Positions 47,870-64,000 of a stretch of DNA of 64,000 bases are shown here, one piece after another (within the stretch, counting starts at the first letter, position 1; every line of letters begins with the position of its first letter). Made by a program: the position numbers and the translations under genes. Location: assembly GCA_019359125.1 (NCBI GenBank), contig JAHHHY010000002.1, positions 620,001 to 684,000 on the forward strand, read 5' to 3'. A model generated the notes under the pieces. That model was not told the origin of the DNA. It ran no database searches and was given only the letters and a program-made list of their open reading frames with translations. This DNA comes from Pleurocapsa minor GSE-CHR-MK 17-07R (GTDB lineage Bacteria > Chloroflexota > Anaerolineae > Aggregatilineales > Phototrophicaceae).

Positions 47870-49213
47870 CTATGCCTGGGTTTCCCACGGAAAATACATG
47901 TAGGTGATGTTGGGTCCGCTGACCTCATCCGTGAGCGACGATAATAACACAGGCGTGTGATTAAAGTTATCGGTAACCCACACGCTGCCGTCCGGTTCCA
48001 CGCGCTCGACGTACAGCACATGGCCGAAGCGGTCATCCGCGAACGAGTGCTCCGGCTGCATCACCATAACCGAGCCGGGCAGCGGCACGTCGCCCATCTT
48101 GATGCCGTATTCCGGGTGGCGCAGCGCATTTTCCGGCCACAGATAGGCATTGTTCGGGATGCCCGGCGGAATCGGCATGCGGCTGCACACGAAGTTGACG
48201 CAGTTGACCGAGTTGTCGGCCTGGCGCGTGGCATTGAGGATGGCGTCGCTGGTGCGGCCGCCTTCCAGGCTGGCGATCAGCTCCAGGTCGGCACCGGCAC
48301 CGGGGCTGACGCGCTCCAGGCGGTCCTGCAGGCTGGTGATATTATTGGTCGCGTTTTCAATGTTCTGCTGTGAAGCCGCAATTTCGGCGTCAATCGCGGC
48401 AAGCTGCTCGCGCAGGCCGCGGACGCGCGCGTTCGGCGTGACGCCTGCGCTCGTTCCCAGCACCTGGGTCAGGCGGTCCAGCTCGCCCTGAATTTCGGCA
48501 CGTCGACCTTCAAGGGTCGTCAGGTTGCTTTGTTCAGTCTCCAGTGCCGCCTGCTGGCGCGTTAATTCCTGCATCATCGCCTGATTATGCTGGTTGGCAT
48601 AGGCATCCAGCGGCGGCGCTTCCAGCACGACTTCGGGCTCGCTGGACGACGATCCGCCGCCCGATGATCCCCCACCGCTGCTGCTGGTGCGTCCGCGTCC
48701 CGAGCTGCCGCCGCCCACACCGCCACCCGACGAACTGCCGCCGGTGCCTGATGTACCACCTGTGCCACCCGTGCCACTGTTACCAGCATTCCCGCTGTTG
48801 CCCGGGCTGTCGCCGGATTGGCCGGGCGGTGTGCCGCCCTGTCCCGGGGGCGTCCCGCCCTGACCGGGCGGTGTACCTCCCTGTCCGGGGGGAATGAACA
48901 CATCTCCGCCGCCGCCGCCGGGCGCATCGGGGCCATCGCCAGACTGGCGCACGGCTTCTTCAATGGCGTCGGCTGCTTCTTCCAGCCTGTGCGAGAACGA
49001 TTCCAGCTCGTCAGGCCAGGTATCCATGATGGAGCGTTCGCGGCGATACTCCGCATAGAATTTATCGGCGGCAGGGCTTTGGAAGCCGCGCACGACCAAC
49101 TGGTCCACGATACCGTGGGCGACATTCTTGGCATTGCGCACCGTCTCGGCAGAATTCACCAGAGACGATGCTGCCAGTCTTAGTTCGTCAATCCGGGCTT
49201 CAAGAGAACTCAT
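47870..49213 (-). CDS. Putative type VII-secreted effector: WXG100-like head, Gly/Pro/Ser-rich linker, C-terminal CHAP amidase domain
   Basis: A 447-residue protein. Residues 1-95 resemble the non-canonical WXG100 protein encoded at 54941 (compare FQSPAADKFYAEYRRER with FSSPSADAFRAEYGRLT). Then comes a linker with three PPGQGGT repeats and a Gly/Ser-rich stretch, a helical coiled-coil region (about 200-320) and a CHAP domain with catalytic C338 (NSVNCVNFVCSRM), H398 (RFGHVLYVERV) and the following DNFN motif. No signal peptide is present. The head would target the export motor and the CHAP domain would cut peptidoglycan, as wall hydrolase or antibacterial toxin. No immunity gene is obvious. 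It starts 11 bp after the single-pass membrane protein gene. Confidence 0.8.
   Translation of the reverse strand: MSSLEARIDELRLAASSLVNSAETVRNAKNVAHGIVDQLVVRGFQSPAADKFYAEYRRERSIMDTWPDELESFSHRLEEAADAIEEAVRQSGDGPDAPGGGGGDVFIPPGQGGTPPGQGGTPPGQGGTPPGQSGDSPGNSGNAGNSGTGGTGGTSGTGGSSSGGGVGGGSSGRGRTSSSGGGSSGGGSSSSEPEVVLEAPPLDAYANQHNQAMMQELTRQQAALETEQSNLTTLEGRRAEIQGELDRLTQVLGTSAGVTPNARVRGLREQLAAIDAEIAASQQNIENATNNITSLQDRLERVSPGAGADLELIASLEGGRTSDAILNATRQADNSVNCVNFVCSRMPIPPGIPNNAYLWPENALRHPEYGIKMGDVPLPGSVMVMQPEHSFADDRFGHVLYVERVEPDGSVWVTDNFNHTPVLLSSLTDEVSGPNITYMYFPWETQA
48820..48895 (-). repeat. Short tandem repeats coding PPGQGGT linker
   Basis: Three 21-bp units encode PPGQGGT in the linker of the CHAP protein, with synonymous changes between units. 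A fourth partial unit follows as PPGQSGD. Confidence 0.75.
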
Positions 49214-50208: not shown

Positions 50209-53200
50209 TTACTTCCGTTTCGTCGGCTTCAGATTGCGGCCCATCAGGTCGTCGATCAGGCCGACGGTATCAATATCCAGGTTTACAGTGGGCACATTGC
50301 CCGAACGCGCGCTCGGCGGTGGCTGATACAGATCATCCACACTGGCCGGATTCTGCCAGCTGGCGCGCTCAAATTTGCCCCACAGGCGGTCGTTGATCTG
50401 CGCCACATAGCCAGACGCCGATTCGATGTGCGCCACCTGCACCACCTTGATCTGGTTCAGCAGCGGCACATAGATGCGGCCTTCAGGCATGGCGTCGTTC
50501 GACAGGCCGGTCGTGCGCACGTTCAGCTTTTGCAGGCTTTCTTTCACCATCAGGCCAAAGCCGGAGCGCTTGAGCAGCAGCTGCTTGATCAGCGGGTCGC
50601 TGGTGCGTTCCAGATAGCCCGCCACCCACATATACAGCCCCAGCTCGCTGTGCAGACGGGCATGATCGCGCAGTTGCAGCAGCACCTCAGGATTGCCCGC
50701 CAGTGCCTCGCTGGTCTGGTCATAATCATCGATGACGACGACGGTGGCTGGCAGCTCCGGTGGTTCGTCAGCCTCGAACTCATGATCGCGGATGGACGCA
50801 TAGAACGCATTCATCTCGCTTTGCAGATTCATGAGCTGGGCTTTCAGCTCAATCGGGTCGGTCACCCGTTTGATGACGTGCTTCAGGTTGGTCAGCCCAC
50901 GCATGCTGCGGCCGTTGAAGTCCACCAGCAGGAAGCGCAGTTTCTCAGGCGAATGCAATTGCGCGGCGCTGAGCACTGCCGCCTGCAGCATATTCGTCTT
51001 GCCGGAACCAGGTGGCCCGGTGACCACAAACTGCGGCCCCTGCGCCCACCAGTCCAGCGTATAGACCGATTGCGCGTCATCGTCATAGCGGCCGAGCGGC
51101 GTGACCACATGGTAATCGCTGCTGCGCGTAATCGGTGTCGACAGCGTGTACAGCGGCACAATCGTCGGCAGCGGCTCGATCGGGGCGGGCGCCTGTGCGG
51201 CTGCGCCGCGCGTATCCGGCGCCAGCTTTTTCATATTGAGGTAGCCCAGCTTGAGCTGTCCGACAATCTCGCCACAGGCGGCCAGAGTATCCTGGTCGTC
51301 GTCGGTGGCACGCAGCGTCGGCAGCGCGATCTGCGCGGCCAGCGGCGGATTGTTCGAGACAAAGCAGCGCCCGCCCGGCAGGTCCGGGGAGGCCTGCACG
51401 CGCCCCACAGCAATCAGATAATCGGCCGGGTCGCCCAGCTCCAGCGCGATGCGCTGCTGCATCAGCGAGCGCAGGCGGTCGGGCACAATGTTGGGCGAGT
51501 TGGCGCTCATGACGACGAAGATACCGACGCCGCGGCCTTCATTGACGAGGCGATCGAGGTCAGCCATATGGGTATCGCGGTAAGCGTCGCGGAACTGCTC
51601 GTACTGGTCCACCATGATGACGATGACCGGCGCGAACGGCTCGGCACGGCCTGCCTGACGATCATCCAGCAGTCGCGTCATGCGGTTGAACAGGCGGCGG
51701 ATGCGCTCTGGCTCATTACCGTAAATCACGCGCTCGGCGTGGGGCAGGTCGCCCAGCACATCCAGCCCGGTGCCGGTGAAGCTGACGAAGTACATATGCA
51801 GCTTGTCCGGCGCGTGCAGCAGGGCGAGGCTGATGGCCAGCGTGCGCATGACCATCGTCTTGCCGCTGCCCGGGCTGCCCATGATGAGCACGTGGCCGTC
51901 GCGGCGGTTGGTTTTGCTGCCGTCGCCCGCGCTGGCGTTCAGGTGCAGCCAGAGCGGATGCTGCGTGCGGTTATACACGTCGTCCAAAATGCCGATCGGC
52001 GCGGAGCCGGTGCGGACAGGATTGTTGTCGTGGTCTGTGCCTGGGTCCGCCCACGCGAAGCCATCCCAGCCGACCGTGTTCGACTTGGCGAACGGCTTGG
52101 CCAAGGTGATGCGTTCTTCCAGCGGTGGCAGCAGCAGCGGCTTCATCCACGGCACCGATTCGTCCTTGCTGTAGCTGACGATTGTGTCGACGATGGCGCG
52201 GGCCACGGTATAGGGCTGCTGAATCTCGATCGGCCCGGTGGGGGCTGATGCGCCGTTTCCGCCGCCGGCCGCGTCGGGCGGCATCGACTGGAACGAGGTG
52301 CGCGTCTCCGGCATCAGGCTGATTTTTTCGCCTTTTTCGTCGATCAGTTCCAGCACAAATTCTTCTTTGGGGGCCTCATCTTCGGCCTTGCGCTCGTAGT
52401 CACCGCCGACATAGGCCGTCTGGAATTGTTTGAACAGCCCGGCAGCACCGACCTGGAAATAGCCGCGACCGGGCCAGCCAGGGGGCAGGAAGGCGGCGTC
52501 AGGGCGGCGCAGCATGGCGCGGCTGGCCTCCACGTTCTGCACGCGCAGGCAGATGCGGAATTGCAGGTTGGCGTTCATCTCGTCGGTGATGACGTCCATC
52601 GGGCTTTGCGTGCCCAGCAGCAGATGCAGGCCCAGCGAACGGCCGACCTGCACCGTGCGCACGAGCTCACGCATGAAGTCCGGCATCTCTTTGGCCAGCT
52701 GCGCGAATTCGTCCACGATGATGAACAGGTGCGGCAGCGGCTTGAAGGTCGGGTCATCCAGCCGCGAGGGGTTGGACACGAAGAAGCGGTGATACTGGTT
52801 GATATCGCGCACGTTCATGCTGTCAAGGAACTGCTGGCGGAAGGCGGTTTCGGCCTTCAGCGCCTCCAGCGCACGGCTGACGCGAATCGAGTCGAGGTTG
52901 GTGACGGTGCCGACGGTGTGTGGCAGGCTGGAAAATACGTTGAAGGTGGCGCCGCCTTTGAAGTCGATCAGCAGCAGCGTCAGCAGGCGCGGGTCATGCT
53001 CCAGCACGAGCGCGCAAATCAGCGTCTGCAACAGTTCAGACTTGCCGGAGCCGGTGGTGCCCGCCAGCATGCCGTGCGGGCCGTGATGGTCTTCATCGAG
53101 CGCGATCAGCGTATCGACCGCCAGGCTCTCGCGGCCAATCGGCGCGGCAAACGGGATCATGCCCTTGCGAATCGGGCGCTTCCATTTGGTCTTGATGCGC

Positions 53201-54522
53201 GGGCGCAGGTCATCGACGAAGCGCACGCCGTACATTTCGAGGAAATCGACGCGGCGCGGGATGCGGCCGGCGCCGCCGCTTTCGCGCACGACCACGGCCG
53301 ACAGCGCACGGGTGATGTGTTCGGCGTCCTGTGGGCTGAGGCCGTCGATAGCTTTGCCTTCCACTTCGAAGCCTTCTTCGCCCACGCGGGAGTATACGAA
53401 GCTCTCGTCATTGCCGATATTGATGACGCTGTTGCACAGGCTGGGCACGTTCTCGAAGCTGTTGACCAGGCACAGGGCAGATGCACTCACGGACGCGCCA
53501 TCTTTCAGGATGGTCGTATACACAGATTCCGATTCCACCAGCGCGGGGTCATCGAAAATAATCAGCAGATGCGGCGATTTGGCGCCTTTGGCTTCCTTGC
53601 GCTCATCGATCACCTGGCCCAGCAGGCCCATCAGGTTGCGCATGCTGTTGTTGTCAGACGCGATCAGGTCGGCAGCGCCACCGCGATGGCTCTGGCTGGC
53701 GTGCGGCATCCAGTCCATCCAGCGCCAGTCGTCGGCATTGGCCTGCGAGGTGATCAGGTGGATGTGGATTTCCTGGGGCGCATGCGTGAGCGCGATATTG
53801 CAGATGGCTGCGCGCGCGGCCTTCAGGACCGAAGCGCGTTTGCCGCACATGCCGATGCTGACATCTTTGGTCAGCGATGCGATGATCGGCGCGGCGGGCA
53901 GATAGCGATACTGATCGGCCAGCTTCAGCGCGCGGTCGAGCAGCGGGCTGTCGGTGTCGGGATCCGGGGTATTGATACGCACAGCAGACGGGACACGGCC
54001 GACACCGATGCGGAATGCCGCAAAGTCGGTGTCCGTCGGGCGGCGCTCCCACAACCGCTGATCGCGGGTGAGGGCGGCGTTCAGCCAGTCCTGCGGGCGG
54101 GGAAAGTCATATTCAAGGATGGCCTGCTGGGCATCGTGTGACGCCTGCAGGCGGATGCGCTTCTTTTCCAGCATGCGCACGTAATTCAGTTCGGCCTCAC
54201 GACGGCGGCGTGCCTGGTCGTTCTTGCGCGAACGCTGGGCGAACACTGTGCCGGCGATGGTGAAAAAGCCCAGCAGCAGCATCGGCAGCGCGAAGCCAAT
54301 GCCTTCTCCGCCGCCGGACGTCGCGCCGCGGAAGACATAAAAAATGCCCATCACGGCGATACCCAGGACGGGCACAATGGCGGCAAGGACATTCTGATCC
54401 TGCTGGTCCTGCGGAGCAGGCGGCGCGGGAATGCCCACTTCCTCCGTCTCCATCGCGGGAAACTGGATGCGCGGTGGACGGTTAAAATTAGCGGACTGCG
54501 CGCGTTCTTCGTTGGATGCCAT
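50209..54522 (-). CDS. EccC/EssC-like type VII secretion motor with three FtsK/SpoIIIE ATPase domains
   Basis: A 1437-residue membrane ATPase, the motor that recognises WXG100 substrates and drives export. It has two N-terminal helices (about 44-64 and 75-95), then three ATPase domains with Walker A lysines K494 (GTTGSGKS), K888 (GSPGSGKT) and K1175 (GPPGSGKT). The first domain has a clear Walker B, LFIIVDEFAQL; the later ones VIVIMVDQYEQF and TVVVIDDYDQT. All three P-loops look intact. No N-terminal FHA is fused as in EssC of Firmicutes. It is followed by the single-pass protein and effector genes, and preceded by the WXG100 pair and a terminator-like hairpin. Confidence 0.9.
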   Translation of the reverse strand: MASNEERAQSANFNRPPRIQFPAMETEEVGIPAPPAPQDQQDQNVLAAIVPVLGIAVMGIFYVFRGATSGGGEGIGFALPMLLLGFFTIAGTVFAQRSRKNDQARRRREAELNYVRMLEKKRIRLQASHDAQQAILEYDFPRPQDWLNAALTRDQRLWERRPTDTDFAAFRIGVGRVPSAVRINTPDPDTDSPLLDRALKLADQYRYLPAAPIIASLTKDVSIGMCGKRASVLKAARAAICNIALTHAPQEIHIHLITSQANADDWRWMDWMPHASQSHRGGAADLIASDNNSMRNLMGLLGQVIDERKEAKGAKSPHLLIIFDDPALVESESVYTTILKDGASVSASALCLVNSFENVPSLCNSVINIGNDESFVYSRVGEEGFEVEGKAIDGLSPQDAEHITRALSAVVVRESGGAGRIPRRVDFLEMYGVRFVDDLRPRIKTKWKRPIRKGMIPFAAPIGRESLAVDTLIALDEDHHGPHGMLAGTTGSGKSELLQTLICALVLEHDPRLLTLLLIDFKGGATFNVFSSLPHTVGTVTNLDSIRVSRALEALKAETAFRQQFLDSMNVRDINQYHRFFVSNPSRLDDPTFKPLPHLFIIVDEFAQLAKEMPDFMRELVRTVQVGRSLGLHLLLGTQSPMDVITDEMNANLQFRICLRVQNVEASRAMLRRPDAAFLPPGWPGRGYFQVGAAGLFKQFQTAYVGGDYERKAEDEAPKEEFVLELIDEKGEKISLMPETRTSFQSMPPDAAGGGNGASAPTGPIEIQQPYTVARAIVDTIVSYSKDESVPWMKPLLLPPLEERITLAKPFAKSNTVGWDGFAWADPGTDHDNNPVRTGSAPIGILDDVYNRTQHPLWLHLNASAGDGSKTNRRDGHVLIMGSPGSGKTMVMRTLAISLALLHAPDKLHMYFVSFTGTGLDVLGDLPHAERVIYGNEPERIRRLFNRMTRLLDDRQAGRAEPFAPVIVIMVDQYEQFRDAYRDTHMADLDRLVNEGRGVGIFVVMSANSPNIVPDRLRSLMQQRIALELGDPADYLIAVGRVQASPDLPGGRCFVSNNPPLAAQIALPTLRATDDDQDTLAACGEIVGQLKLGYLNMKKLAPDTRGAAAQAPAPIEPLPTIVPLYTLSTPITRSSDYHVVTPLGRYDDDAQSVYTLDWWAQGPQFVVTGPPGSGKTNMLQAAVLSAAQLHSPEKLRFLLVDFNGRSMRGLTNLKHVIKRVTDPIELKAQLMNLQSEMNAFYASIRDHEFEADEPPELPATVVVIDDYDQTSEALAGNPEVLLQLRDHARLHSELGLYMWVAGYLERTSDPLIKQLLLKRSGFGLMVKESLQKLNVRTTGLSNDAMPEGRIYVPLLNQIKVVQVAHIESASGYVAQINDRLWGKFERASWQNPASVDDLYQPPPSARSGNVPTVNLDIDTVGLIDDLMGRNLKPTKRK

Positions 54523-54560
54523 GCCAGAAAAATCCGTTTCTAAACCAAATCAAGTATGGC

Positions 54561-54610
54561 AAAAACCCTGACCGGGGCGCGGTGTGGTATTTGTGCACCG
54601 GCGGTCAGGG
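54561..54610 (-). terminator. Intercistronic terminator between WXG100 and motor genes
   Basis: On the minus strand CCCTGACCG pairs with CGGTCAGGG (9 bp), followed by TTTTT. It lies between the WXG100 stop (54644) and the motor start (54522), so the substrates can be made in excess of the motor. Confidence 0.75.
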
Positions 54611-54643
54611 GGTCAATCAGGTGTTACGTGCGGACGATGCAGT

Positions 54644-54913
54644 CTAGAATGCTTCGTCGGCGGTCTGCATGCGGCGGGCCTGATTTTCCAGGTCAGTCGC
54701 GAAGCTTTCGAGAATCTGCACCCAGCGTTCCATCTGCGGGCGGGCATCTGCCCACATATTGAAGAAACGCTCGGCGCGGCGGCCCATCCAGTTGATCGAT
54801 TCGACCGTTTCGTTCAGCGTATTAATTTCGGTGCGCACGGCATCGGCCTGCTGGCGGATGGTCGCGGCGCGCTGGAAAAGCTCGGTATAAGGGACGCGAA
54901 TCATATCGCTCAT
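54644..54913 (-). CDS. WXG100-family protein (canonical)
   Basis: An 89-residue ESAT-6-like helical protein. The WXG motif is WMG in SINWMGRRAERFFNMW, flanked by helices of heptad character. Such proteins form dimers exported by type VII systems and recognised by the motor. The C-terminal signal Y-x3-D/E is not obvious, though EF/AF at the end may play a part. It starts 27 bp after the second WXG100-like gene. Confidence 0.88.
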   Translation of the reverse strand: MSDMIRVPYTELFQRAATIRQQADAVRTEINTLNETVESINWMGRRAERFFNMWADARPQMERWVQILESFATDLENQARRMQTADEAF

Positions 54914-54940
54914 GAGATTTTATCCTTTCAGCGCGGCGGC

Positions 54941-55222
54941 TTAGGTAGGCCGTGACGCGGCTTCAATTTCGTCGGCCGAGGCGAGCAGCTTTTCCTTGAA
55001 CAACATCAGGTCAGAATACGCTTCGCGCAGGTCGCCGGTCAGGCGGCCATATTCTGCACGGAAGGCATCTGCCGACGGGCTGGAAAAGCGATCGGGGCCG
55101 ATGGCAGTCACCTGCGCATTGGTCGCATCCATTGATTCGCTGACGCGCTGGGCACTGTTGCCAATCGTATTGGCTGCCTCGCGCATTTCTGTAATTCGGG
55201 CGAGCAGTTCGCCACCTTCCAT
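54941..55222 (-). CDS. WXG100-like protein without canonical WXG
   Basis: A 93-residue helical-hairpin protein of the same size as the WXG100 neighbour. The turn reads RFSSPSADAFRAEYGRL, where the WXG tripeptide would be, so it is a non-canonical partner, as in many ESX heterodimers. It aligns with the N-terminal 95 residues of the CHAP effector. A candidate promoter lies 50 bp upstream. Confidence 0.82.
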   Translation of the reverse strand: MEGGELLARITEMREAANTIGNSAQRVSESMDATNAQVTAIGPDRFSSPSADAFRAEYGRLTGDLREAYSDLMLFKEKLLASADEIEAASRPT

Positions 55223-55469: not shown

Positions 55470-58400
55470 CTATGGCGCGACCGGCTCCAGATAGTAGGTA
55501 TCGGGTGCGACACCTTCGGCAATCCAGCCCTGCGGGCCGCCGATAATCTGCACTTCCCACCAGGTCAGCTGGTCCACCGGGTCGCACACCGGGCCGCCCA
55601 GAATCTGCATGCGTCGGCCTTCGGCAAACTGGTTACGGATGCCGCCGTTGGTGGAGGGTTCGTCGCGCACACGCAGTGGGTCGCCGTCCGCGGTAACGAC
55701 TGCTGCACCGCCGATGGCCACGCGTGGTGGCGGGCCGCCCGCACAGCCGCCGCCGGAGATCGTCGGCACCGGGGTGGGGGTCGCTGTAGAGCGCGCCAAT
55801 GGCACCGGATCTTCATTGTCGTTCAGGCCGTCACCATCCGTGTCTGGCAGGGTCGGGTCGGTGCCAATATTCATCGCCTCGTCACCGTCCAGCAGCTGGT
55901 CGCCGTCCGTATCGCGGTTGAGCGGGTCTGTGCCCCACACACGCACTTCCTCACCGTCATTCAGGCCGTCTTCGTCGGTATCGGCCAGGAAAGGATCCGT
56001 GCCCATTTCAAGTTCGCGGAAAGTTGCCAGGCCATCCCCGTCCGGGTCTGCACCAGCAGTGGCAGTCGCCGCGAGTGGAATCGATGTTTGAACGGCCGCC
56101 TCGGTCGCTGTGAGCGCCAGGTCGGTGGCGCGTACTTCGGCCGTCGCCGTGATATTGCGCGGGGTGACCACGAGCTGGTTGAAGAGCGTCACGCCCAGGC
56201 CAATCACGCCTGCCAGCGAGATACCCAGCAGGCCCAGAATCCAGCGCGGCAGGATGGCCGGGTTGACCAGGTCGCCCATGTGCGTCTGCGGGTTCAGGCC
56301 TTCTTCCTGCGGCACCACGCCAATTTCAAAAGTCACCGATTCAGGTGTGCCGATGAAGATGGTCTTTTTCGCGGACATCTCGACCGGGATAATTTCTTTT
56401 TCACCCGGCTTCAGCACGAATTGTTTTTTGGCCAGCCCGGCATTCAGCAGCTCTTCACGGTCACGCGCATAGATATTGAACGTGGTGAAGGTATTGCCTT
56501 TGTTTTCCACTTCCAGGTCGATCTTGCCCCGGCGCTTTTTCAGGCGCTGCGGCTCAATCTTGCTGACGTAGGTGTAATACGGCTCGATTTGCAGGACAGC
56601 CTGCATGGCCTCGGACTGAAGGCCCTGCGCACGGGCTGTGGCGCGCACTTCAAATGGATGAGCGCCGGCTTTCGAGCTGGGGCGTCTGGGCGGATGGAAA
56701 GTAATCTGTGCCGTGTCTTTCTGCTTGGGCATCAGATAGATCGTCTGCTGCGGCTCGGTATACCACTCCGGATCGAGGCCGATGACCTGAATGGTGAAGT
56801 GGTCCACCAGATTGCTGTCATTCTGTACTTCCAGCGACAGCGTCATGCGTGAACCGGCATCAACCTTGACGGTCGAGCCCATCAGCTTCAGGCCGATTTG
56901 TTCGCGTTCGGTATAGTTCGGCGCATCCTGGCCAATACCGCCAGCGCTGCTGCCCTGCCCGGCGTAACTGCCCTGGGGGGCATATGACGGGGAAGGCATT
57001 GGCGGCGGATTATAGGCCGGCGGCTGCGACGGCGCAGGCATGCTGGGGAATCCCGGAACAGCGGCTGGCGGCGTATACATCGGCGGCTGCGAGGGCGCGG
57101 GGAATCCGGCTGGCTGCATGGGCGGCGGCGTGTACGGCGTATTCGATGGTGCAGGCGGCTGTGACGGGGGCGGGGCCGACTGGTTCTCCAGCTGGGTGAA
57201 GCTGAGCTGGGCGAACTGATTGGCCGCGGCCTGATTACCTGCCTCGATGGTCAGCCAGAATTCGCCGATGCGGAACTGCTGCCCGGGTGTGACAAATTCG
57301 GGCGCGTTTTCGGCCAGACGGCGTTCGTTGATATAGGTGCCGTTGCTGGAACCGAGGTCAATCAGACGGTAGCGGCCGTCAAATGCGCGCTCCAGCCGTG
57401 CGTGTGAGCGCGAGACCTTGGTGCCCACCAGCACGATATCGCGGTCGTCCGCGCGGCCAATGATGAAGACGTCTTTGTTCAGCGGCACGGCCCATGAACT
57501 GCCATCGGTGCCGGTGACCAGCAGGCGGTCCATGCCGGCCTGTCCGGGGGACACAGGCACGGGCTGCTGCTGCGGAGCCGGGGTCATCGGCGCTGCTGGC
57601 TGAGACACGGGCGCGGGCACATACGTCGGGGTGGGGCCGGCCTGCGGCGGCGGCGCGGATGGCGTTGATGCGGCGGGGGCTGGGCTGGGCGCATTGGCAC
57701 CGGAGCCGCCCAGCGATTTCAACCGCTGAATCTCGCGCGACATGTCGCCCGCCGTCTGATAGCGGTCGTTCGGGTTCTTCTGCGTCGCTTTCACGATGAT
57801 GCGCTCGATATCGGCCGGGAAGCCAGGGCGCTGCTCAGACGGCTTCGGCAGCGGCTCGCGCACGTGCATGCGGATCGCCTCGGTGATCGAGCGTGGCTGA
57901 TAGGGCAGCTTGCCCACGGTCAGCTCATACAGCATGATGCCCAGCGCGTAGATATCCGCGCGATTGTCCACTTTTTCGGCTTCGGCCTGTTCGGGGGACA
58001 TATAGGCAAACGTGCCCATCGGCACACCGCTCATCGAATGCACATTGCTTTCGGCCAGCTTCGCCAGACCAAAATCGGTCACCAGGCAGCGATAGCCGCT
58101 GGTTGCGCTTTCATCCCGTTTCAGCAGGATGTTGTCCGGTTTGATATCGCGGTGCGTCATGCCCTGCTGGTGCGCATAATGCAGCGCATCGCAGATCTGG
58201 CGCGTGAAATCTGCCGCCATGACGGTTTCGATTGTCTTGCCTTTGTCGCGCTGTTCCTTGATGAAGTCGCGCATGCTGCCGCCGGACACAAGGTCCATCA
58301 CCAGAATGAGCATGCCCTCGGTGTTGTCGAAGGAAAGGATGCGCACAATGCCCGGATGATCCAGGCTGGCTGCCGCGCGCGCTTCCTGGAGGAAACGCTT

Positions 58401-58568
58401 CTGAAACTGATCCTGGGCCGACAGATGAGGGTGCATCACCTTCAAGGCGACCTGGCGCTGAAGATTCAGATCGGTGGCCTGATAGACCGCGCCCATGCCC
58501 CCGGTGCCGAGCACTTTCTCGACACGGTAATGCGCGACGACCTTTCCGATCATATCCTGTTCTGTCAT
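55470..58568 (-). CDS. Transmembrane Ser/Thr protein kinase with FHA, TSP3 and SH3-like modules
   Basis: A 1032-residue protein. Residues about 12-275 are a Hanks-type kinase with K43, catalytic D141 in HRDIKPDN and D165 in DFG, all intact. Pro-rich linkers flank an FHA domain at about 346-440 (RSHARLERAFDGRYRLIDLGSSNGT). Ig-like modules follow at about 545-760, a membrane helix near 772-795, TSP3 calcium repeats at about 840-925 (TDTDGDQLLD-type), and an SH3-like domain near 950-1032. The outside half could sense the wall or ligands. Its place between the eCIS and type VII-like genes makes it a candidate regulator of both. Confidence 0.87.
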   Translation of the reverse strand: MTEQDMIGKVVAHYRVEKVLGTGGMGAVYQATDLNLQRQVALKVMHPHLSAQDQFQKRFLQEARAAASLDHPGIVRILSFDNTEGMLILVMDLVSGGSMRDFIKEQRDKGKTIETVMAADFTRQICDALHYAHQQGMTHRDIKPDNILLKRDESATSGYRCLVTDFGLAKLAESNVHSMSGVPMGTFAYMSPEQAEAEKVDNRADIYALGIMLYELTVGKLPYQPRSITEAIRMHVREPLPKPSEQRPGFPADIERIIVKATQKNPNDRYQTAGDMSREIQRLKSLGGSGANAPSPAPAASTPSAPPPQAGPTPTYVPAPVSQPAAPMTPAPQQQPVPVSPGQAGMDRLLVTGTDGSSWAVPLNKDVFIIGRADDRDIVLVGTKVSRSHARLERAFDGRYRLIDLGSSNGTYINERRLAENAPEFVTPGQQFRIGEFWLTIEAGNQAAANQFAQLSFTQLENQSAPPPSQPPAPSNTPYTPPPMQPAGFPAPSQPPMYTPPAAVPGFPSMPAPSQPPAYNPPPMPSPSYAPQGSYAGQGSSAGGIGQDAPNYTEREQIGLKLMGSTVKVDAGSRMTLSLEVQNDSNLVDHFTIQVIGLDPEWYTEPQQTIYLMPKQKDTAQITFHPPRRPSSKAGAHPFEVRATARAQGLQSEAMQAVLQIEPYYTYVSKIEPQRLKKRRGKIDLEVENKGNTFTTFNIYARDREELLNAGLAKKQFVLKPGEKEIIPVEMSAKKTIFIGTPESVTFEIGVVPQEEGLNPQTHMGDLVNPAILPRWILGLLGISLAGVIGLGVTLFNQLVVTPRNITATAEVRATDLALTATEAAVQTSIPLAATATAGADPDGDGLATFRELEMGTDPFLADTDEDGLNDGEEVRVWGTDPLNRDTDGDQLLDGDEAMNIGTDPTLPDTDGDGLNDNEDPVPLARSTATPTPVPTISGGGCAGGPPPRVAIGGAAVVTADGDPLRVRDEPSTNGGIRNQFAEGRRMQILGGPVCDPVDQLTWWEVQIIGGPQGWIAEGVAPDTYYLEPVAP

Positions 58569-58727: not shown

Positions 58728-59513
58728 CTAGCAGCAGTCTTTTTCGTCGCGCTTGGCCTGCACGGGTGCGCCGCCGGTCTGCTGCACGACGTGCGTCAGC
58801 TCGTGCGCCAGCAGTTCCTGGCCGCCAGAGCTGCCGGGGTTGAATTCGCCGCCGCGGAAATAAATGTCATTGCCGGTGGTGAAAGCGCGCGATCCCAGCG
58901 AACGGTTGAGCGTATCCGACTGGGTATCGGTGTGAATATTCACGTTCGAGAAGTCGTGGCCCATGCGATCCGCAAAGAAGCTGGTGCTTTCCTGGGGCAT
59001 GCTCTGGCCGCTGCCGCTGGTCGAGGCGATCTGCTGCTCGATATCGCCGCCGACGTCAAACGAGCCGCTCATATCCACCTGCTCATCGGTGCGGGCCAGC
59101 ATGAGTTCTTCATCTTCCGACTCGCCGCCTTCGCTTTCGCGCTGGATGCGCTTGAGCGCGATTTCTTCTTCTTCCATCTCGCCGCCCTCGCTTTCGCGCT
59201 GGATGCGTTTCATGGCCAGCTCGTCTTCCTCACCGGCGCGCTGCACCGACGATTCGCTGGACCCGCTCATTACCTGCGCGGCGACGGTATCGGCTTCACG
59301 TTCATAGGCGTCGTCTGCTGCGCCGACGGTCATCTTGGCCTGAATGCCGATGCCGTCCATCAGGCGCTGCACCGCTTTGTTGCCGATGACTTTCTGCAGA
59401 TCGACCACGCTTCCGGTATCGATCTGAGCAGTATTTGACCGTGTGGATTGGGTTTCCGGCGTGCGCGTCGTTTTGGCCGCAACCCGCGATTCGTGCGTAT
59501 GATACCCTGCCAT
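58728..59513 (-). CDS. DUF4157 / eCIS-core domain protein
   Basis: A 261-residue protein with the eCIS-core (DUF4157) features: VGAADDAYEREADTVAAQVM, then GHDFSNVNIHTD and GQELLAHELTHVVQQ with the HELTH zinc motif. The domain marks proteins associated with extracellular contractile injection systems. Two acidic direct repeats (RIQRESEGGE) lie between, and the protein ends soon after HELTH with a basic tail and two cysteines (KRDEKDCC), so no toxin domain is attached. ATG 59513 is chosen for its GAAAGG spacing; GTG 59522 overlaps that signal. Confidence 0.9.
   Translation of the reverse strand: MAGYHTHESRVAAKTTRTPETQSTRSNTAQIDTGSVVDLQKVIGNKAVQRLMDGIGIQAKMTVGAADDAYEREADTVAAQVMSGSSESSVQRAGEEDELAMKRIQRESEGGEMEEEEIALKRIQRESEGGESEDEELMLARTDEQVDMSGSFDVGGDIEQQIASTSGSGQSMPQESTSFFADRMGHDFSNVNIHTDTQSDTLNRSLGSRAFTTGNDIYFRGGEFNPGSSGGQELLAHELTHVVQQTGGAPVQAKRDEKDCC
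59121..59207 (-). repeat. Direct repeats in eCIS-core gene
   Basis: CTCGCCGCC[CT]TCGCTTTCGC-type 30-bp units at 59121-59150 and 59178-59207 differ at one base, period 57 bp (19 residues). They encode RIQRESEGGE followed by an acidic run. Confidence 0.88.
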
Positions 59514-59574
59514 GTCGATCACCCTTTCAGATCGTTATCTCTAAGAACAGATTATACACCGATAATTTATTGCG

Positions 59575-61035
59575 CTACGTGATTTCCAGCGTATAGGATG
59601 CAAATGCCGGTTTGTTGTCCAGAATCAGACGGTCCAGCATCTCACGCGTGACATTGGTTTCCACGCTGCTCAGCTCAATGCGCACCGTGAAATGGGCGGC
59701 TTCCTCGATGATTTCCGGCCGGACGCCGGTATACAGCTCCAGCAGACGCTCCATGCCAGCGCGGGTGCCACGGCGCTGGGCCAGCCACCCCGCCTGCGAG
59801 AACAACAGGCGCTGACGTTCTGCGGGCAGCTCGGCGCTGATATAGATATCGAAGATACTCGCCAGCCAGCGCACCCATTCCAGCGGCGCGACCTCCGGCG
59901 TGTAATACATGTCCATATTGTCGATGATCCAGATGGCCGGGCTCATCATCGCCTCGGCGAGGATCATATAGCGGCCCAGAAAATCATCATCGAGATAAAT
60001 GCCAGGCAGATACTTCATCCACGTGCTGGCGTCGCGCGGCATGCCCACCGGATACATGCTGTGTCCATTGCTGGACGGAGGGGCAGGCGGCAGCGGCGGC
60101 AGCGGTTCTTCGGGAATCAGGCTGGCGCCATCTCCGCCGATGCGCGGGGGCAGCTTGTCAAACGGATCGTCCGACTTCTTCTCCGGCTTGGCAGCAGGTT
60201 CTTCTTTCGGCGCAGGCTTGGGCTTCTCGATGCCCGGCGGTGGCTCCACCGACAGGGCAGGTGCCTCGACTGGCTTCTCTGGTTCCTTCTTCTTCGGCGC
60301 TTTTTCCGGCGACGGTTTGGCAGCAGGGGCATCAGGCGCGACCGGCGTAAACAGGAACGATTTGCCTTCGTCGGGTTTCGCTTCTGCGGTTGGCTTTTTC
60401 GCCGGCTTTTCAGGCGCAGGCGGTGTCGTCAGTTCTTCGACCGCGTCCAGCGCAGAATCGAGGGCTTTCTCGGCGGCGCTCGCCAGGCTTTCGATGAGCG
60501 ACGGCGGCGTGGTGACCGGCTGATAATCATCCTCAGGCACCACAGGCTCAGGCGGAGGCGCCTTTTGTTTCGGGGCAGGCGGAAGGACCTCTGGTTCCGG
60601 TTCCGGCTCTGCCTCGGCCTGGGGAATATCTCCCACGACAAAGGCCACGTCTACGGGAAGCTGGTCCATCGGGTCTTCGGCGGCGTCCTCTGGCGTGCTT
60701 TCTTCTTCAGCTTCGCCTTCGGGCAATTCGATGTGCTCAAAACGCACCACAAACGGGCCCATGCGGATGGATTCACCGGGCTGGAGCACCTGGGGTACGT
60801 CGGCCTTCAGGCGCTGATCGTTGTACCAGATGCCGTTGCTGCTGTTCAGGTCGCGGACAGCCAGCTCGCCATTGATCCACTCAAAGCGCATGTGATGGCG
60901 GCTGATCTCGCTGGACGCCAGCACCAGTTCGTTATCGGCCGAGCGACCCGCGCGCAGGCCAGTAGGCGGCACGCGCACGATTTCGTCGGTGATATTGGGT
61001 CCAAAGATCGTAAAGACAGCAGTTGGGCCGTTCAT
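59575..61035 (-). CDS. FHA domain fused to phage-tail/eCIS tail protein
   Basis: A 486-residue fusion. Residues 1-105 form an FHA domain with GRSADNELVL, SRHHMRFEW and DLNSSNGIWYNDQRL, which bind phosphothreonine peptides. A long Lys/Pro/Glu-rich linker follows, and residues about 340-486 match the TIGR02242-type tail protein (YLPGIYLDDDFLGRYMI, WLASIFDIYIS, AQRRGTRAGMERLLELYTG). The tail part belongs to the baseplate-proximal gpI-like proteins. The FHA gives the injection machine a phosphothreonine-reading element. It starts 9 bp after the baseplate J-like gene. Confidence 0.83.
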   Translation of the reverse strand: MNGPTAVFTIFGPNITDEIVRVPPTGLRAGRSADNELVLASSEISRHHMRFEWINGELAVRDLNSSNGIWYNDQRLKADVPQVLQPGESIRMGPFVVRFEHIELPEGEAEEESTPEDAAEDPMDQLPVDVAFVVGDIPQAEAEPEPEPEVLPPAPKQKAPPPEPVVPEDDYQPVTTPPSLIESLASAAEKALDSALDAVEELTTPPAPEKPAKKPTAEAKPDEGKSFLFTPVAPDAPAAKPSPEKAPKKKEPEKPVEAPALSVEPPPGIEKPKPAPKEEPAAKPEKKSDDPFDKLPPRIGGDGASLIPEEPLPPLPPAPPSSNGHSMYPVGMPRDASTWMKYLPGIYLDDDFLGRYMILAEAMMSPAIWIIDNMDMYYTPEVAPLEWVRWLASIFDIYISAELPAERQRLLFSQAGWLAQRRGTRAGMERLLELYTGVRPEIIEEAAHFTVRIELSSVETNVTREMLDRLILDNKPAFASYTLEIT

Positions 61036-61044
61036 TCAGACCCC

Positions 61045-63024
61045 TTATTCGATGCGAACATCATGGGTTGCCGATGCGACGATACCCTGCGGCGGCAGCG
61101 GCAGCACCGCCAGCGCCTCGCCACGCGTGAAGCTGCCGCGTTCGTAGGTGGCCGGATAGAGCGCAGCCGCGCGCACAGATTCGACGCCAGGCACAGCCAG
61201 CAGCGCCGCCATGATGTCGCCGATGTTCAGGTCACGGCCAAAAGGCCAGCCCTTGCCATCATGCCCACCCGTGATCGGGTTGAGGAAGTTATACAGCTTG
61301 TCCTCGGCTTTCTGGCGGGTTTCTTCGGCAGGTGCGCTGGGCAGCACGCGGATGCGCACATCCGTCTCGACGAACTGATATGACGGCGGCAGCACGTCCA
61401 GCTGGGTGGCCAGCATGCGGCGCTCATCCAGATAGGCGAAAATGATGTCACGCAGGTCCTGCGACAGGCTCAGGCTTTCCGGCGCAATATAGCCTTCCGG
61501 TGACTTGATGCGCGGGATGATCAGCACCTTGATTTCGCCACGGGCGGTGGTGGGCGGTTGCAGGCAGAACGCGCGCGACACCATGCCGGGTGCTGCTTCT
61601 TCGGCCAGATAGGCGAAGTCCTGGGCGGTCACGGCGCGGTCAAGCGAGCGCAGGAAGCCGGGCACGCGCTGCTTGGCGGTATCCAGCTTTTCGGCATCCA
61701 GGCCGCCGCGTGCCGCGATGCGGTTGGTCACCCGGGCGATATACGGGATGTTCGACTTCATGATGGTGATGGTTTCAGCCGCCAGATTGCCCTGCTGCCC
61801 GCCGCCGAAGCGATAGGCCCGCATGACGATCATGGCGTTCTTGGGCGGCATGGCGCCGAAGCACTGGATGCTGCCATCGCGCTGGGGCAGGGCGGGTCCG
61901 AAATGGATTTCGCCGGTGCTGCCGTCGAGCGTGTAATGCTTGTCATCGGGCAGCGAGCTCGAGAAGTCAGCGACTTCCGCCCAGCGTTCGTCGCGGCCGT
62001 CATCGCGGCGCACGATGATGTATTCCTGCGACTTGATGCGCGGCACGACCGGCGTGTGTGCCAGGAAAAAGCGCTGTCCCGGGGTGCCGTCAGAGCGACC
62101 AAGAATTTCGTTCTTGATGCGCGTGACATTGGTGGACTCGATGGTGATGCCCCAGCTTGCGATGCTCATCTGCGTGATCGTGGGGCTGACGCCATACGTG
62201 CGCTGCGAGCGCGTCGGATCCAGGCGGCAGCGCACCCAGAAAGCAGTGACTCCGCCACGGGTGCCTTTCGACAGCTTCGGCAGGTGAATGCGCACCAGGC
62301 CGGGCGTGTTCAGGCCCAGCGTGCCGTCCATGTCGAGCGCGACTGGCATCCAGTTCTGTTCGGCGTCGACGCCCATCACTTCCCACACATACGGGGGATT
62401 GTTGGGGTCGATACCGGCGCCTTCAGCCCGTGCCACCGAAATCTGGATGCCCAGAATATGGTGGCTCAGGTCCTGCTCAAAGCCAATGTAAAAGGCGTCA
62501 CCCTGTTTGGGCGGCTTCGACTCAAAGGCGAGGAAGCTTTCGTTGCCACCCAGCACACGGCGCGCTTCATAGCTCTTGAATTCGCGCTGGCCGGTTCTGC
62601 CCGTCGAGCTGGTGAGCACATGCGCCAGCTTCGGCACATAGATTTCGACCGGCACGTCAGTGCTGAAGACGATGGCCGGGTCGGTGTCGGTGCGCACGGT
62701 GGAGACTTCTGTGCCGTCTGGAATCGTGATGTCGTTTGCCTGTGGCACCGTCAGCCAGAAGGTGACCGGCACGCGGGCCGGCTCTGCTTCCTGCATACGG
62801 ATGCCAATCATCTCCATGAATTTCACGTACATCTTGTCTGGCACGCGATTCAGGCGATACAGCACGATATCGGTCATCCACGCGAACAGCTCGATCAGCG
62901 TGATGCCCGGGTCACTCAGATTATGGTCTGTCCATTCAGGACAGTACAGCGGAATGCGGCGTCGCGCCTCATCAACCAGGTCACGGAAGCTGCGATCGTC
63001 CAGCTTGGGTGTTTCGAATCCCAT
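61045..63024 (-). CDS. Baseplate J-like assembly protein (TIGR02243 type)
   Basis: A 659-residue baseplate protein similar to the J-like/TIGR02243 family of contractile injection systems. Typical features are the N-terminal DDRSFRDLVDEARRRIPLYCPEW...LSDPGITLIELFAWMTD and the C-terminal REVRA-like EVTIRVLPSAP region. It forms part of the baseplate wedge. It is placed between the gp25 and FHA-tail genes, 12 bp and 9 bp from them. Confidence 0.88.
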   Translation of the reverse strand: MGFETPKLDDRSFRDLVDEARRRIPLYCPEWTDHNLSDPGITLIELFAWMTDIVLYRLNRVPDKMYVKFMEMIGIRMQEAEPARVPVTFWLTVPQANDITIPDGTEVSTVRTDTDPAIVFSTDVPVEIYVPKLAHVLTSSTGRTGQREFKSYEARRVLGGNESFLAFESKPPKQGDAFYIGFEQDLSHHILGIQISVARAEGAGIDPNNPPYVWEVMGVDAEQNWMPVALDMDGTLGLNTPGLVRIHLPKLSKGTRGGVTAFWVRCRLDPTRSQRTYGVSPTITQMSIASWGITIESTNVTRIKNEILGRSDGTPGQRFFLAHTPVVPRIKSQEYIIVRRDDGRDERWAEVADFSSSLPDDKHYTLDGSTGEIHFGPALPQRDGSIQCFGAMPPKNAMIVMRAYRFGGGQQGNLAAETITIMKSNIPYIARVTNRIAARGGLDAEKLDTAKQRVPGFLRSLDRAVTAQDFAYLAEEAAPGMVSRAFCLQPPTTARGEIKVLIIPRIKSPEGYIAPESLSLSQDLRDIIFAYLDERRMLATQLDVLPPSYQFVETDVRIRVLPSAPAEETRQKAEDKLYNFLNPITGGHDGKGWPFGRDLNIGDIMAALLAVPGVESVRAAALYPATYERGSFTRGEALAVLPLPPQGIVASATHDVRIE

Positions 63025-63036
63025 GCGAACCCCCCT

Positions 63037-63426
63037 CTAAGTTTGCTGTGGGATAACGTAGAAAGGAAACACGAGGTTGCGCCGGTCATTCTGACCTTTG
63101 ATCTCATAAATGATCTCAACGGAGAGCGCGCCCAGATCGTGTTCCGGTATGACATTGATTTCTTCCAGCCGCACCCGTGGTTCCCAGCGGGTGAGGGCTT
63201 CGCGCACATAACGCTCGGCCACAATGGCTGTTGCCTCGTTGCACGGGTCAAAAATCAGCTCGTGAATACGGCAGCCAAAATCAGGCCGCATCACGCGCTC
63301 GCCCGGGCAGGTCATAATGATGATACGCATGGCCTGGCGAATATCCACATCCTCGCTGGCCATCTCCACACGGTCTCGATCGTCCAGTTTTGGTGGGAAC
63401 GACCACCCTTTTCCTACGAAGCTCAT
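63037..63426 (-). CDS. gp25-like baseplate protein
   Basis: A 129-residue protein of the gpW/gp25 family that links sheath and baseplate. It has the segments VDIRQAMRIIIMTCPGERVMRPDFGCRIHELIFDP and VREALTRWEPRVRLEEINV. Start ATG 63426 fits the family N-terminus, and its length is typical. It is followed 12 bp later by the baseplate J-like gene. Confidence 0.9.
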   Translation of the reverse strand: MSFVGKGWSFPPKLDDRDRVEMASEDVDIRQAMRIIIMTCPGERVMRPDFGCRIHELIFDPCNEATAIVAERYVREALTRWEPRVRLEEINVIPEHDLGALSVEIIYEIKGQNDRRNLVFPFYVIPQQT

Positions 63427-63493: not shown

Positions 63494-64000
63494 TCAGTTG
63501 ATCATCACAGCAGAACCCTTCAGCGTCAGGGTGCCGCTGGACTGGATGGTGATACTGCCGTTGCCCTGGATGGTGATGGTGGCACCATTGATGTTGAGTG
63601 ACGCTGGCGTCTCCAGCTTGGCACCGCCGGTCCCCTTCAGATTCAGGTTTGAAGTGGCCTCGATGGTGGCGTTGCTGGTGGCCTTCGTCTCGAAATTGGC
63701 CTGCGTTTCGATTTTGTAATCCCCGGTAGCCCTGCTGGTTGACTTGCCCTTCAGCTCGGTATTCATGTCGCCTTCTGACGTGGTCTCAATGAGATTATTG
63801 GCCGCATCGAAAAGCATGACATGCTTGCCTTTGCCATCTTTCAGCGTGATGGCCTCCTCGCCCGATTTGTCGTTAAAGAGCAGCGTGTGGCCGATGCGTG
63901 TCTTCAGCATCCGGTGTTCAACGTTGCCATCTGCAATCGCGCTGTTAGGGGCTTCCGGCGTTTTATTCTTGTTTGACCACATGCCGCCCAGCACATATGG
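63494..64000 (-). CDS. VgrG/gp5-like spike protein, C-terminal part, truncated by window edge
   Basis: The open frame runs to the right window edge, so the start is outside. It covers 168 codons. At the edge the sequence PYVLGGMWSNKNKTP resembles the end of the OB-fold of VgrG/gp5 spike proteins. The following repeats (LNLKGTGGAKLETPASLNI, ITIQGNGSITIQSSGTLTL) form the triangular beta helix of the needle tip. It is 67 bp before the gp25 gene in transcription order. Confidence 0.82.
   Translation of the reverse strand, partial: PYVLGGMWSNKNKTPEAPNSAIADGNVEHRMLKTRIGHTLLFNDKSGEEAITLKDGKGKHVMLFDAANNLIETTSEGDMNTELKGKSTSRATGDYKIETQANFETKATSNATIEATSNLNLKGTGGAKLETPASLNINGATITIQGNGSITIQSSGTLTLKGSAVMIN

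What the first reader, a model, noticed from the sequence alone, without database searches (positions are those of the whole stretch)
59575..61035. FHA domain fused to an injection-system tail protein
An FHA domain reads phosphothreonine. In type VI systems, kinase-FHA circuits (PpkA/Fha) control assembly. Here an FHA is fused to a structural tail protein of an eCIS, with a Ser/Thr kinase nearby. This could be an independent case of phosphothreonine control of a contractile machine.
Basis: partly seen in the sequence, partly recalled or inferred. Interest (0 to 1): 0.75.

Follow-up and report, generated by a model that had tools for sequence, protein, structure and literature searches.

The report
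Kinase-linked phosphothreonine reader on injection baseplate
In many Chloroflexota bacteria, one baseplate protein of an internal, phage-tail-like injection machine carries a phosphothreonine-reading domain and is usually encoded beside a matching membrane kinase, which suggests that phosphorylation docks or fires the machine.

Summary
The fusion is real: 486 aa with an N-terminal FHA domain (Pfam 58 bits), a disordered linker and a C-terminal Tail_P2_I domain (30 bits). The tail domain is the homologue of Cis12, a baseplate wedge protein of the Streptomyces coelicolor CIS (9gtp). The baseplate-J and sheath neighbours match the same machine, so this is most like a class IId "cytoplasmic" CIS, not an extracellular one. 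The fusion recurs in several Chloroflexota groups. All five FHA core residues (R, S, H, N, G) are kept in 45 of 52 non-redundant FHA-Cis12 proteins. In 28 of 37 informative loci with an intact FHA, a catalytically complete Ser/Thr kinase follows, usually fused to its own FHA, an Ig-like region and a transmembrane helix. Eight of the other nine genomes hold such a kinase elsewhere. None of 48 FHA-less Cis12 loci has one beside it. Where Cis12's FHA lost core residues, the adjacent kinase is missing or a pseudokinase (6 of 6 loci), but the tree-corrected test is not significant. Best reading: phosphothreonine-dependent docking of the baseplate on a bitopic kinase, analogous to CisA and to T6SS PpkA/Fha. 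I found no published description in the library searched. Binding, phosphosites and firing are untested.

The parts
59575..61035 (-). FHA-Cis12 (FHA fused to tail protein I / baseplate wedge protein), 486 aa
60757..60954 (-). FHA domain, residues 28-93; R31, S45, H48, N67, G68 invariant in 30 of 30 aligned proteins (window included)
59605..59916 (-). Tail_P2_I / Cis12 domain, residues 374-477 (homologous stretch about 326-486)
55470..58568 (-). Ser/Thr kinase-FHA-Ig-TM protein with C-terminal TSP3 and a weak SH3_3 match, 1032 aa, proposed docking and signalling partner
57756..58529 (-). Kinase domain, HRD and DFG motifs present, nearest solved structure PknB
57264..57464 (-). FHA domain of the kinase; core R, S, H, N, G invariant in 16 of 16 aligned partner sequences
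56259..56900 (-). Ig-like region of the partner, immediately before the TM helix
56178..56246 (-). Predicted transmembrane helix (model helix 775-797; hydropathy maximum 2.26)
58728..59522 (-). eCIS_core (DUF4157) protein, 264 aa, between FHA-Cis12 and the kinase
61045..63024 (-). Baseplate J protein, Cis11 homologue (9gtp_1K, E 3e-146)
63037..63426 (-). gp25-like sheath initiator (Cis9 position)
63494..64000 (-). 3' part of the VgrG-like spike gene; the gene and the rest of the CIS operon lie beyond the window (L021:495-13234)

Best explanation
This is the baseplate wedge protein Cis12 of a class IId-like (cytoplasmic) contractile injection system, extended at its N-terminus by a phosphothreonine-reading FHA domain on a flexible tether. 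Its partner is the bitopic kinase encoded next to it: kinase, FHA and Ig-like region before one TM helix, TSP3/SH3-like region after it. Proposed mechanism: an envelope signal makes the kinase autophosphorylate or phosphorylate a nearby protein. The FHA domains of Cis12 (six copies per baseplate, by homology with S. coelicolor) then bind the phosphothreonines together. This docks the free cytoplasmic particle on the membrane and permits firing, the role played in Streptomyces by the bitopic protein CisA. PP2C-like phosphatases found at some loci would reset the switch. Shown here: fusion, homology, conserved FHA core, linkage, intact catalytic motifs, predicted TM position. Inferred: binding, phosphosite, topology, docking, firing.
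For: (1) FHA core R,S,H,N,G kept in 45 of 52 FHA-Cis12 proteins. In the 30-row alignment the linker has 11% mean identity to the window protein (gaps counted as different) against 41% for the FHA. (2) An adjacent catalytically complete kinase is present in 28 of 37 informative loci with intact FHA, against 0 of 48 with FHA-less Cis12 (Fisher p 5e-15, not tree-corrected). Its ORF begins within 2 kb in 27 of the 28. In 25 of the 28 kinase and FHA are in one ORF, in L106 and L218 the gene is split over two frames, in L187 no FHA is fused. (3) Eight of the nine remaining loci lie in genomes with a kinase-FHA-Ig protein with HRD and DFG elsewhere. (4) Among 61 relatives a strong match to the partner's Ig region (E at or below 1.2e-22, a threshold set after seeing the list) occurs in 15 of 18 genomes with FHA-Cis12 and 2 of 43 without. 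(5) All six informative loci with a degenerate Cis12 FHA lack an adjacent complete kinase. In the first FHA of the partners of L169, L170, L171, L172 and L175 the Arg is Gln or Ser. (6) Cis12 and Cis11 identity from 9gtp. (7) CisA precedent (PMC12237407, passages). CIS particles were purified from T. carboxidivorans and seen unanchored in the cytoplasm of R. castenholzii, and close cisA homologues are said to be absent in Roseiflexus (PMC12998442, passages). (8) PP2C-like genes within about 10 kb downstream of FHA-Cis12 in L111, L222, L109 and L108.
Against: Tree correction leaves few independent events: 5 pairs on starred branches, about 2 in the same direction, 0 opposite, about 3 with no difference; sign test not significant. 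G221 (L178) has an intact Cis12 FHA but only a kinase-less FHA-FHA-Ig protein was found. G121 has degenerate Cis12 FHAs at two loci yet holds catalytically complete kinases, one of them fused to FHA and Ig. In three informative loci of genus g30 the adjacent kinase lacks the catalytic Asp (HES/HQS) although the FHA is intact; the complete kinase is unlinked. Five further intact loci have no kinase adjacent, only elsewhere in the genome. Weak matches to the partner's Ig region (E at or below 0.001) occur in 55 of 61 relatives, so the co-occurrence depends on the threshold. Degenerate FHAs persist without complete adjacent kinases, so some may act without phosphate. No linker threonine motif shared across clades was seen (by eye). 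Published tomograms show unanchored particles in intact Roseiflexus cells (PMC12998442), so docking has not been seen.
Confidence: 0.5

Rival explanations
1. Phosphate-independent structural adaptor: the FHA fold links the baseplate to the membrane protein constitutively, as the FHA-like cytoplasmic domain of T3SS YscD does (recalled), and the kinase is incidental.
For: Yop-YscD_cpl also matches both FHA regions. FHA-like domains persist on Cis12 and its partner in loci without a complete adjacent kinase (L169-L172, L175).
Against: The phosphothreonine-contacting residues are kept in 45 of 52 proteins, which a scaffold would not need. All six informative loci with altered residues lack an adjacent complete kinase, as a role for phosphate predicts, though G121 has complete kinases elsewhere.
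Confidence: 0.2
2. GarA/OdhI-like switch within the particle: the kinase phosphorylates Cis12 itself (linker or N-terminus), its FHA folds back on its own phosphothreonine or on another Cis12, and this controls assembly or stability, not membrane docking.
For: A disordered linker with threonines (4.4 per 100 aa over the linkers printed) next to the FHA. GarA and OdhI are among the closest FHA folds.
Against: Linker threonines are not in a motif seen across clades. Linkers shrink to about 30 residues in many homologues. The partner keeps a predicted TM helix, which assembly control would not require.
Confidence: 0.15
3. Bystander: STPK/FHA genes are abundant in Chloroflexota and the FHA was picked up without a specific role in the CIS.
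For: 22 FHA and 28 kinase matches in the window's own genome. The fusion was seen only in Chloroflexota-type loci.
Against: A same-strand kinase within 2 kb downstream by chance has probability about 0.6% at the density of the window's genome, yet the kinase begins within 2 kb in 27 of 37 intact informative loci. FHA-less CIS-like loci of the same order have none (L223-L226, L228, L229: 0 of 6).
Confidence: 0.1

Closest known systems
S. coelicolor class IId cytoplasmic CIS with the membrane protein CisA (PMC12237407, passages read)
   Same: Cis11, Cis12 and sheath homology; [quoted passage not shown]
   Different: S. coelicolor Cis12 is 190 aa and matches over the tail domain only. The paper's main text has no mention of kinase or FHA. 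CisA is described there as a largely unstructured N-terminus, a TM segment and a solute-binding-like domain, with Cis11 as its predicted contact.
Roseiflexus castenholzii / Thermogemmatispora carboxidivorans CIS (PMC12998442, passages read)
   Same: Same CIS lineage and phylum. T. carboxidivorans PM5 is L151 here, with intact FHA-Cis12 and a complete kinase next to it.
   Different: The paper's main text mentions neither FHA nor kinase. [quoted passage not shown]
T6SS threonine phosphorylation pathway PpkA/Fha (PMC3953482 and PMC12607579, abstracts and section lists read)
   Same: Membrane Ser/Thr kinase, phosphothreonine-reading FHA protein, contractile machine.
   Different: There the FHA is in a separate accessory protein, which binds phosphorylated TssL in one system. 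Here it is fused to a baseplate wedge protein, and no TssJ, TssL or TssM Pfam match was listed among the 30 proteins scanned.
eCIS loci with GerE regulators and histidine kinases (PMC8213781, passages read)
   Same: A kinase gene next to an eCIS operon.
   Different: Histidine kinases paired with a transcription factor, in 9% of GerE-containing eCIS operons; FHA is not mentioned.
GarA/PknB of mycobacteria (6i2p)
   Same: Among the nearest solved folds of both the FHA and the kinase.
   Different: A metabolic regulator; no contractile machine.

Membership tests
FHA phosphothreonine-binding domain | FHA profile and fold | tested here: met
   PF00498 58 bits; Z 17.6 to DgcB FHA over 100 residues
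FHA phosphothreonine-binding domain | Arg, Ser, His and Asn-Gly core residues conserved | tested here: met
   Present in the window protein; 45 of 52 FHA-Cis12 proteins
FHA phosphothreonine-binding domain | Binds a phosphothreonine peptide | not testable with these tools
   Needs a binding assay
CIS class IId (cytoplasmic CIS) | Core genes: sheath, tubes, cap, AAA, spike, gp25, Cis11, Cis12 | tested here: met
   no PAAR or fibre family was among the Pfam matches listed
CIS class IId (cytoplasmic CIS) | Closest to S. coelicolor CIS structures | tested here: met
   Sheath: 8bky/9gtp E 2e-157, 8bl4/9gts 2e-154, next 9ezm 6e-108; Cis11 E 3e-146; Cis12 E 7.5e-24, the only PDB match. No CIS class tree was built here
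CIS class IId (cytoplasmic CIS) | Particles stay in the cytoplasm | not testable with these tools
   Reported for R. castenholzii in PMC12998442
T6SS PpkA/Fha pathway | T6SS membrane complex TssJLM | tested here: inconclusive
T6SS PpkA/Fha pathway | Membrane kinase plus FHA protein at the locus | tested here: met
T6SS PpkA/Fha pathway | PP2C phosphatase at the locus | tested here: inconclusive
   Near FHA-Cis12 in L111, L222, L109, L108; in the window genome a PP2C-like match only elsewhere
CisA | TM-anchored membrane protein downstream of baseplate genes | tested here: met
   Ig partner with a TM helix in 29 of 37 informative intact loci
CisA | Sequence homology to CisA | not tested
   CisA sequence not fetched; PMC12998442 reports no close homologue in Roseiflexus

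The most novel reading that the evidence does not exclude
Chloroflexota carry a phospho-gated, cell-internal contractile machine. A membrane stress-sensing kinase recruits the particle through six FHA-bearing baseplate proteins and so licenses its firing through the producer's own membrane: an origin of kinase-FHA control separate from the T6SS, in a different lineage of contractile machines, with decay into pseudokinase and degenerate-FHA versions in some lineages.
Probability: 0.35. Interest if true: 0.88.

Novelty: new variant of a known kind. Interest (0 to 1): 0.77.

Why it matters
[quoted passage not shown] This finding names a specific candidate pair, FHA-Cis12 and a bitopic kinase, with point mutations that would test it. 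It would also show kinase-FHA control in a second lineage of contractile machines, with the phosphothreonine reader built into the baseplate.

Tried and rejected
Ideas rejected or weakened. (a) Chance FHA match: rejected. (b) Extracellular CIS label: weakened; the closest structures are of the S. coelicolor CIS. (c) Kinase nearby by density: rejected. (d) Conserved phospho-acceptor motif in the linker: looked for by eye in the linkers; none seen across clades, though SFLFTP recurs in the window, L102 and L103. (e) Tree-corrected association: attempted, not significant. (f) FHA-Cis12 in viral contigs: one distant match only, query residues 341-441, outside the FHA (three tail-domain patterns were used, so an FHA on another tail protein would be missed). 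(g) VIA-align rows spanned residues 1-107 only; the tail domain rests on Foldseek and hmmsearch. (h) Papers, judged from listings: searches (25 of 1,120 listed) showed no paper on FHA or Ser/Thr kinase control of a non-T6SS CIS; one search was a search for the T6SS pathway. One search listed one paper holding both of its terms (PMC13222765, an engineered nanosyringe in mice), not opened. In the main texts of PMC8213781, PMC11297309, PMC10020575, PMC12237407, PMC12998442 and PMC13314943 FHA has 0 mentions each. The 2019 eCIS survey is not held, and supplements were not open.

Rows dropped before the counts: 15 of 106 (downstream sequence under 2.4 kb in 11, masked in 2, ORF cut by a contig end in 2). 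Three of the dropped rows (L126, L128, L221) do have a complete kinase next to them. L169, L118 and L122 passed narrowly (2455, 2460 and 2495 bp). The four-motif screen scored L174's kinase as complete; one search requires HRD and DFG or DLG, so L174 (HGD, DYG) counts as a pseudokinase there. The unlinked kinases were checked for HRD and DFG-like words only. In one search the intact side counts any adjacent complete kinase (L187 included) or an unlinked kinase-FHA-Ig, while the degenerate side counts only kinase-FHA-Ig found through the Ig region, so the two sides are not searched equally.

Full report
OBSERVATION. The ORF at window 59575-61035 (-) is 486 aa. Pfam gives FHA at residues 28-93 (58 bits) and Tail_P2_I at 374-477 (30.2 bits), both over the curated cut-offs. 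The window is G000:C5:620001-684000 of an unnamed 4.85 Mb genome. The closest loci with public titles are MAGs named Chloroflexi bacterium OLB15 (70% identity over the tail domain), Anaerolineae bacterium CH4 and Aggregatilineales bacterium BIN16. The AlphaFold2 model shows a confident FHA, a mostly confident tail domain and a disordered linker. The FHA fold matches phosphothreonine-binding FHAs.

WHAT MACHINE. The operon continues beyond the window. In the direction of transcription: AAA ATPase, Pvc16-like cap protein, sheath, tube, tail-assembly-chaperone-like protein, second tube, a 1188-aa low-complexity protein, CIS_tube, VgrG-like spike, gp25, Baseplate_J, FHA-Tail_P2_I, eCIS_core protein, then the kinase. 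A profile of the tail domain finds one solved sequence, 9gtp_E of the S. coelicolor CIS baseplate, six chains (E 7.5e-24). Baseplate_J matches 9gtp_1K, twelve chains (E 3e-146). This fits the wedge of two Cis11 and one Cis12 described in PMC12237407 (passages), so the fusion protein is Cis12. The sheath is closest to the same machine (E 2e-157). I therefore call it a class IId-like, Streptomyces-type cytoplasmic CIS. That class name is from the papers; I did not build a CIS class tree.

CONSERVATION OF THE FUSION. Among 61 genomes (own plus 60 relatives), 23 have a tail-domain match; the 18 strong matches (E below 1e-36) all carry an N-terminal FHA, and no FHA was found with the 7 weak ones, two of whose ORFs run off the stretch held. 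In 400 genomes of the phylum 74 have a Tail_P2_I match. I first examined 30 of those places, of which 14 had an FHA, and some others later. A scan of genome contigs with one tail pattern found 67 loci, 30 with an FHA. By title 29 of these 30 are Chloroflexota (Anaerolineae, Ardenticatenia, Ktedonobacteria, Roseiflexus, Thermogemmatispora tikiterensis, T. aurantia, T. carboxidivorans and others; placing these names in the phylum is recalled) and one is labelled Bacteroidetes (L112). In all I collected 124 tail ORFs, 106 non-redundant, 53 with an FHA. Of 52 with the FHA core fully aligned, 45 have R, S, H, N and G; the others are RAHTG (2), RAHSG, RAHNP, RSHQP, RSHSG and SAHQP.

THE LINKED KINASE. 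In the window the gene after the eCIS_core gene encodes a 1032-aa protein: kinase, FHA, Ig-like region, one predicted TM helix, TSP3 and a weak SH3_3 match. The kinase is closest to PknB. Of 106 tail ORFs, 91 are informative: at least 2.4 kb of unmasked downstream sequence and an uncut tail ORF. With an intact Cis12 FHA (37 loci), a catalytically complete kinase (HRD with DFG or DLG) lies within 6 kb downstream on the same strand in 28; 3 have a pseudokinase there (HES/HQS); 6 have none. In 27 of the 28 the kinase ORF begins within 2 kb. With a degenerate FHA (6 loci), 5 have only a pseudokinase and 1 none. With no FHA (48 loci), none has a kinase. An Ig-like partner with a TM helix after the Ig region is present in 29 of 37 intact loci; in the other 8 none was found in the stretch held. 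Chance of a same-strand kinase within 2 kb is about 0.6% from the density in G000. Six FHA-less CIS-like loci of the same order have none.

THE EXCEPTIONS. I tested the nine intact loci without an adjacent complete kinase. A kinase-FHA-Ig protein with HRD and DFG lies elsewhere in G029, G040, G041, G019 and G539, and in the pseudokinase genomes G059, G054 and G466, plus G043, which is redundant with them. Only for G221 was none found; it has a kinase-less FHA-FHA-Ig protein. So for 36 of 37 intact loci a complete kinase was found, adjacent or not. Control in the degenerate group: of five genomes, G121 does hold catalytically complete kinases, one fused to FHA and Ig; in G130, G305, G439 and G368 none was seen in the stretches examined, and weaker matches in G130 were not fetched. 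The contrast 36/37 against 1/5 has Fisher p 2e-4, but the rows are related and the two sides were not searched equally. On the tree (quick method) FHA-Cis12 falls in two large clades (24 and 16 rows), a pair and a single row. The independent-pairs test gives 5 pairs, about 2 agreeing, 0 opposed, about 3 without difference, not significant. I treat the association with the presence of an FHA as strong and the residue-by-residue co-decay as suggestive.

GENOME CO-OCCURRENCE. A strong match to the partner's Ig-like region (E at or below 1.2e-22, a threshold set after seeing the list) occurs in 15 of the 18 relatives with FHA-Cis12 and in 2 of 43 without; weaker matches (E at or below 0.001) occur in 55 of 61. 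Of the three misses, two have masked sequence downstream of FHA-Cis12 and in one the contig ends there.

MECHANISM. Inference: the FHA on a flexible tether, six copies per particle by homology, would bind phosphothreonine on the kinase or on a protein it phosphorylates at the cytoplasmic face of the membrane. In S. [quoted passage not shown] In R. castenholzii particles lie free in the cytoplasm, close cisA homologues are said to be absent, and the authors say the mechanism may differ (PMC12998442, passages). T. carboxidivorans (strain PM5 is L151), a species from which particles were purified there, has the intact FHA and the complete kinase. PP2C-like proteins within about 10 kb downstream in L111, L222, L109 and L108 would complete a switch. 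Nothing here shows binding, phosphorylation, topology or firing.

COMPARISON. In the T6SS, PpkA phosphorylates Fha or TssL and the FHA protein is a separate accessory (PMC3953482, PMC12607579, abstracts). It works like that pathway by analogy; no TssJLM match was listed among the 30 proteins scanned, and the core genes are those of a CIS. I found no description of FHA or Ser/Thr kinase control of such CIS in the library (listings), which lacks most subscription papers and the 2019 eCIS survey.

VERDICT. Observation confirmed. Interpretation partly supported and widened: an FHA-Cis12/kinase module on cytoplasmic-type CIS, widespread in Chloroflexota. New variant of a known kind; interest 0.77.

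Noticed in passing
window 50209-55222 (-) and 47870-49213 (-): Two WXG100 proteins, an EccC/FtsK-like protein with three FtsK_SpoIIIE stretches, a 326-aa protein and a WXG100-CHAP protein follow the kinase: a type VII-like secretion cluster contiguous with the CIS operon. Parts of it recur in L104, L103 and L216, and beside the unlinked kinases of G029 (L231) and G008 (L240).
   Followed up: partly
L021:3032-6598 and window 58728-59522: A 1188-aa low-complexity CIS-operon protein carries repeated VQRK / IQPxR words, and the eCIS_core protein carries similar KRIQRES words; possibly a shared binding motif.
   Followed up: no
L179, L180, L186 (tail ORFs): Some Cis12 proteins carry, in place of the FHA, an Ig-like domain that matches the Ig region of the kinase partner, as if the N-terminal slot of Cis12 exchanges domains with its membrane partner.
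   Followed up: partly
L088, L089, L214 and L108, L109, L110, L113: CIS-linked pseudokinases: one genus lost the catalytic Asp of the adjacent kinase, and several partners carry a second kinase domain with an altered DFG motif.
   Followed up: partly
L022:452-7702: About 21-29 kb from the FHA-Cis12 gene in the window's genome lie another kinase, a PP2C-like protein and three FHA proteins.
   Followed up: no
L112: A contig labelled Bacteroidetes encodes an Anaerolineae-type CIS whose tail domain is 56% identical to the query; probably a misassigned metagenome bin.
   Followed up: no
L108:17994-20171, L109:17797-19932, L110:9474-11537, L113:18712-20457, L222:14537-16684: A family of about 700-aa proteins, with two hydrophobic segments and a C-terminal FHA in L108, L109 and L110, lies downstream of FHA-Cis12 in five loci (directly after the kinase in L108, L109, L110 and L113), with PP2C-like genes after it in L108, L109 and L222.
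   Followed up: partly
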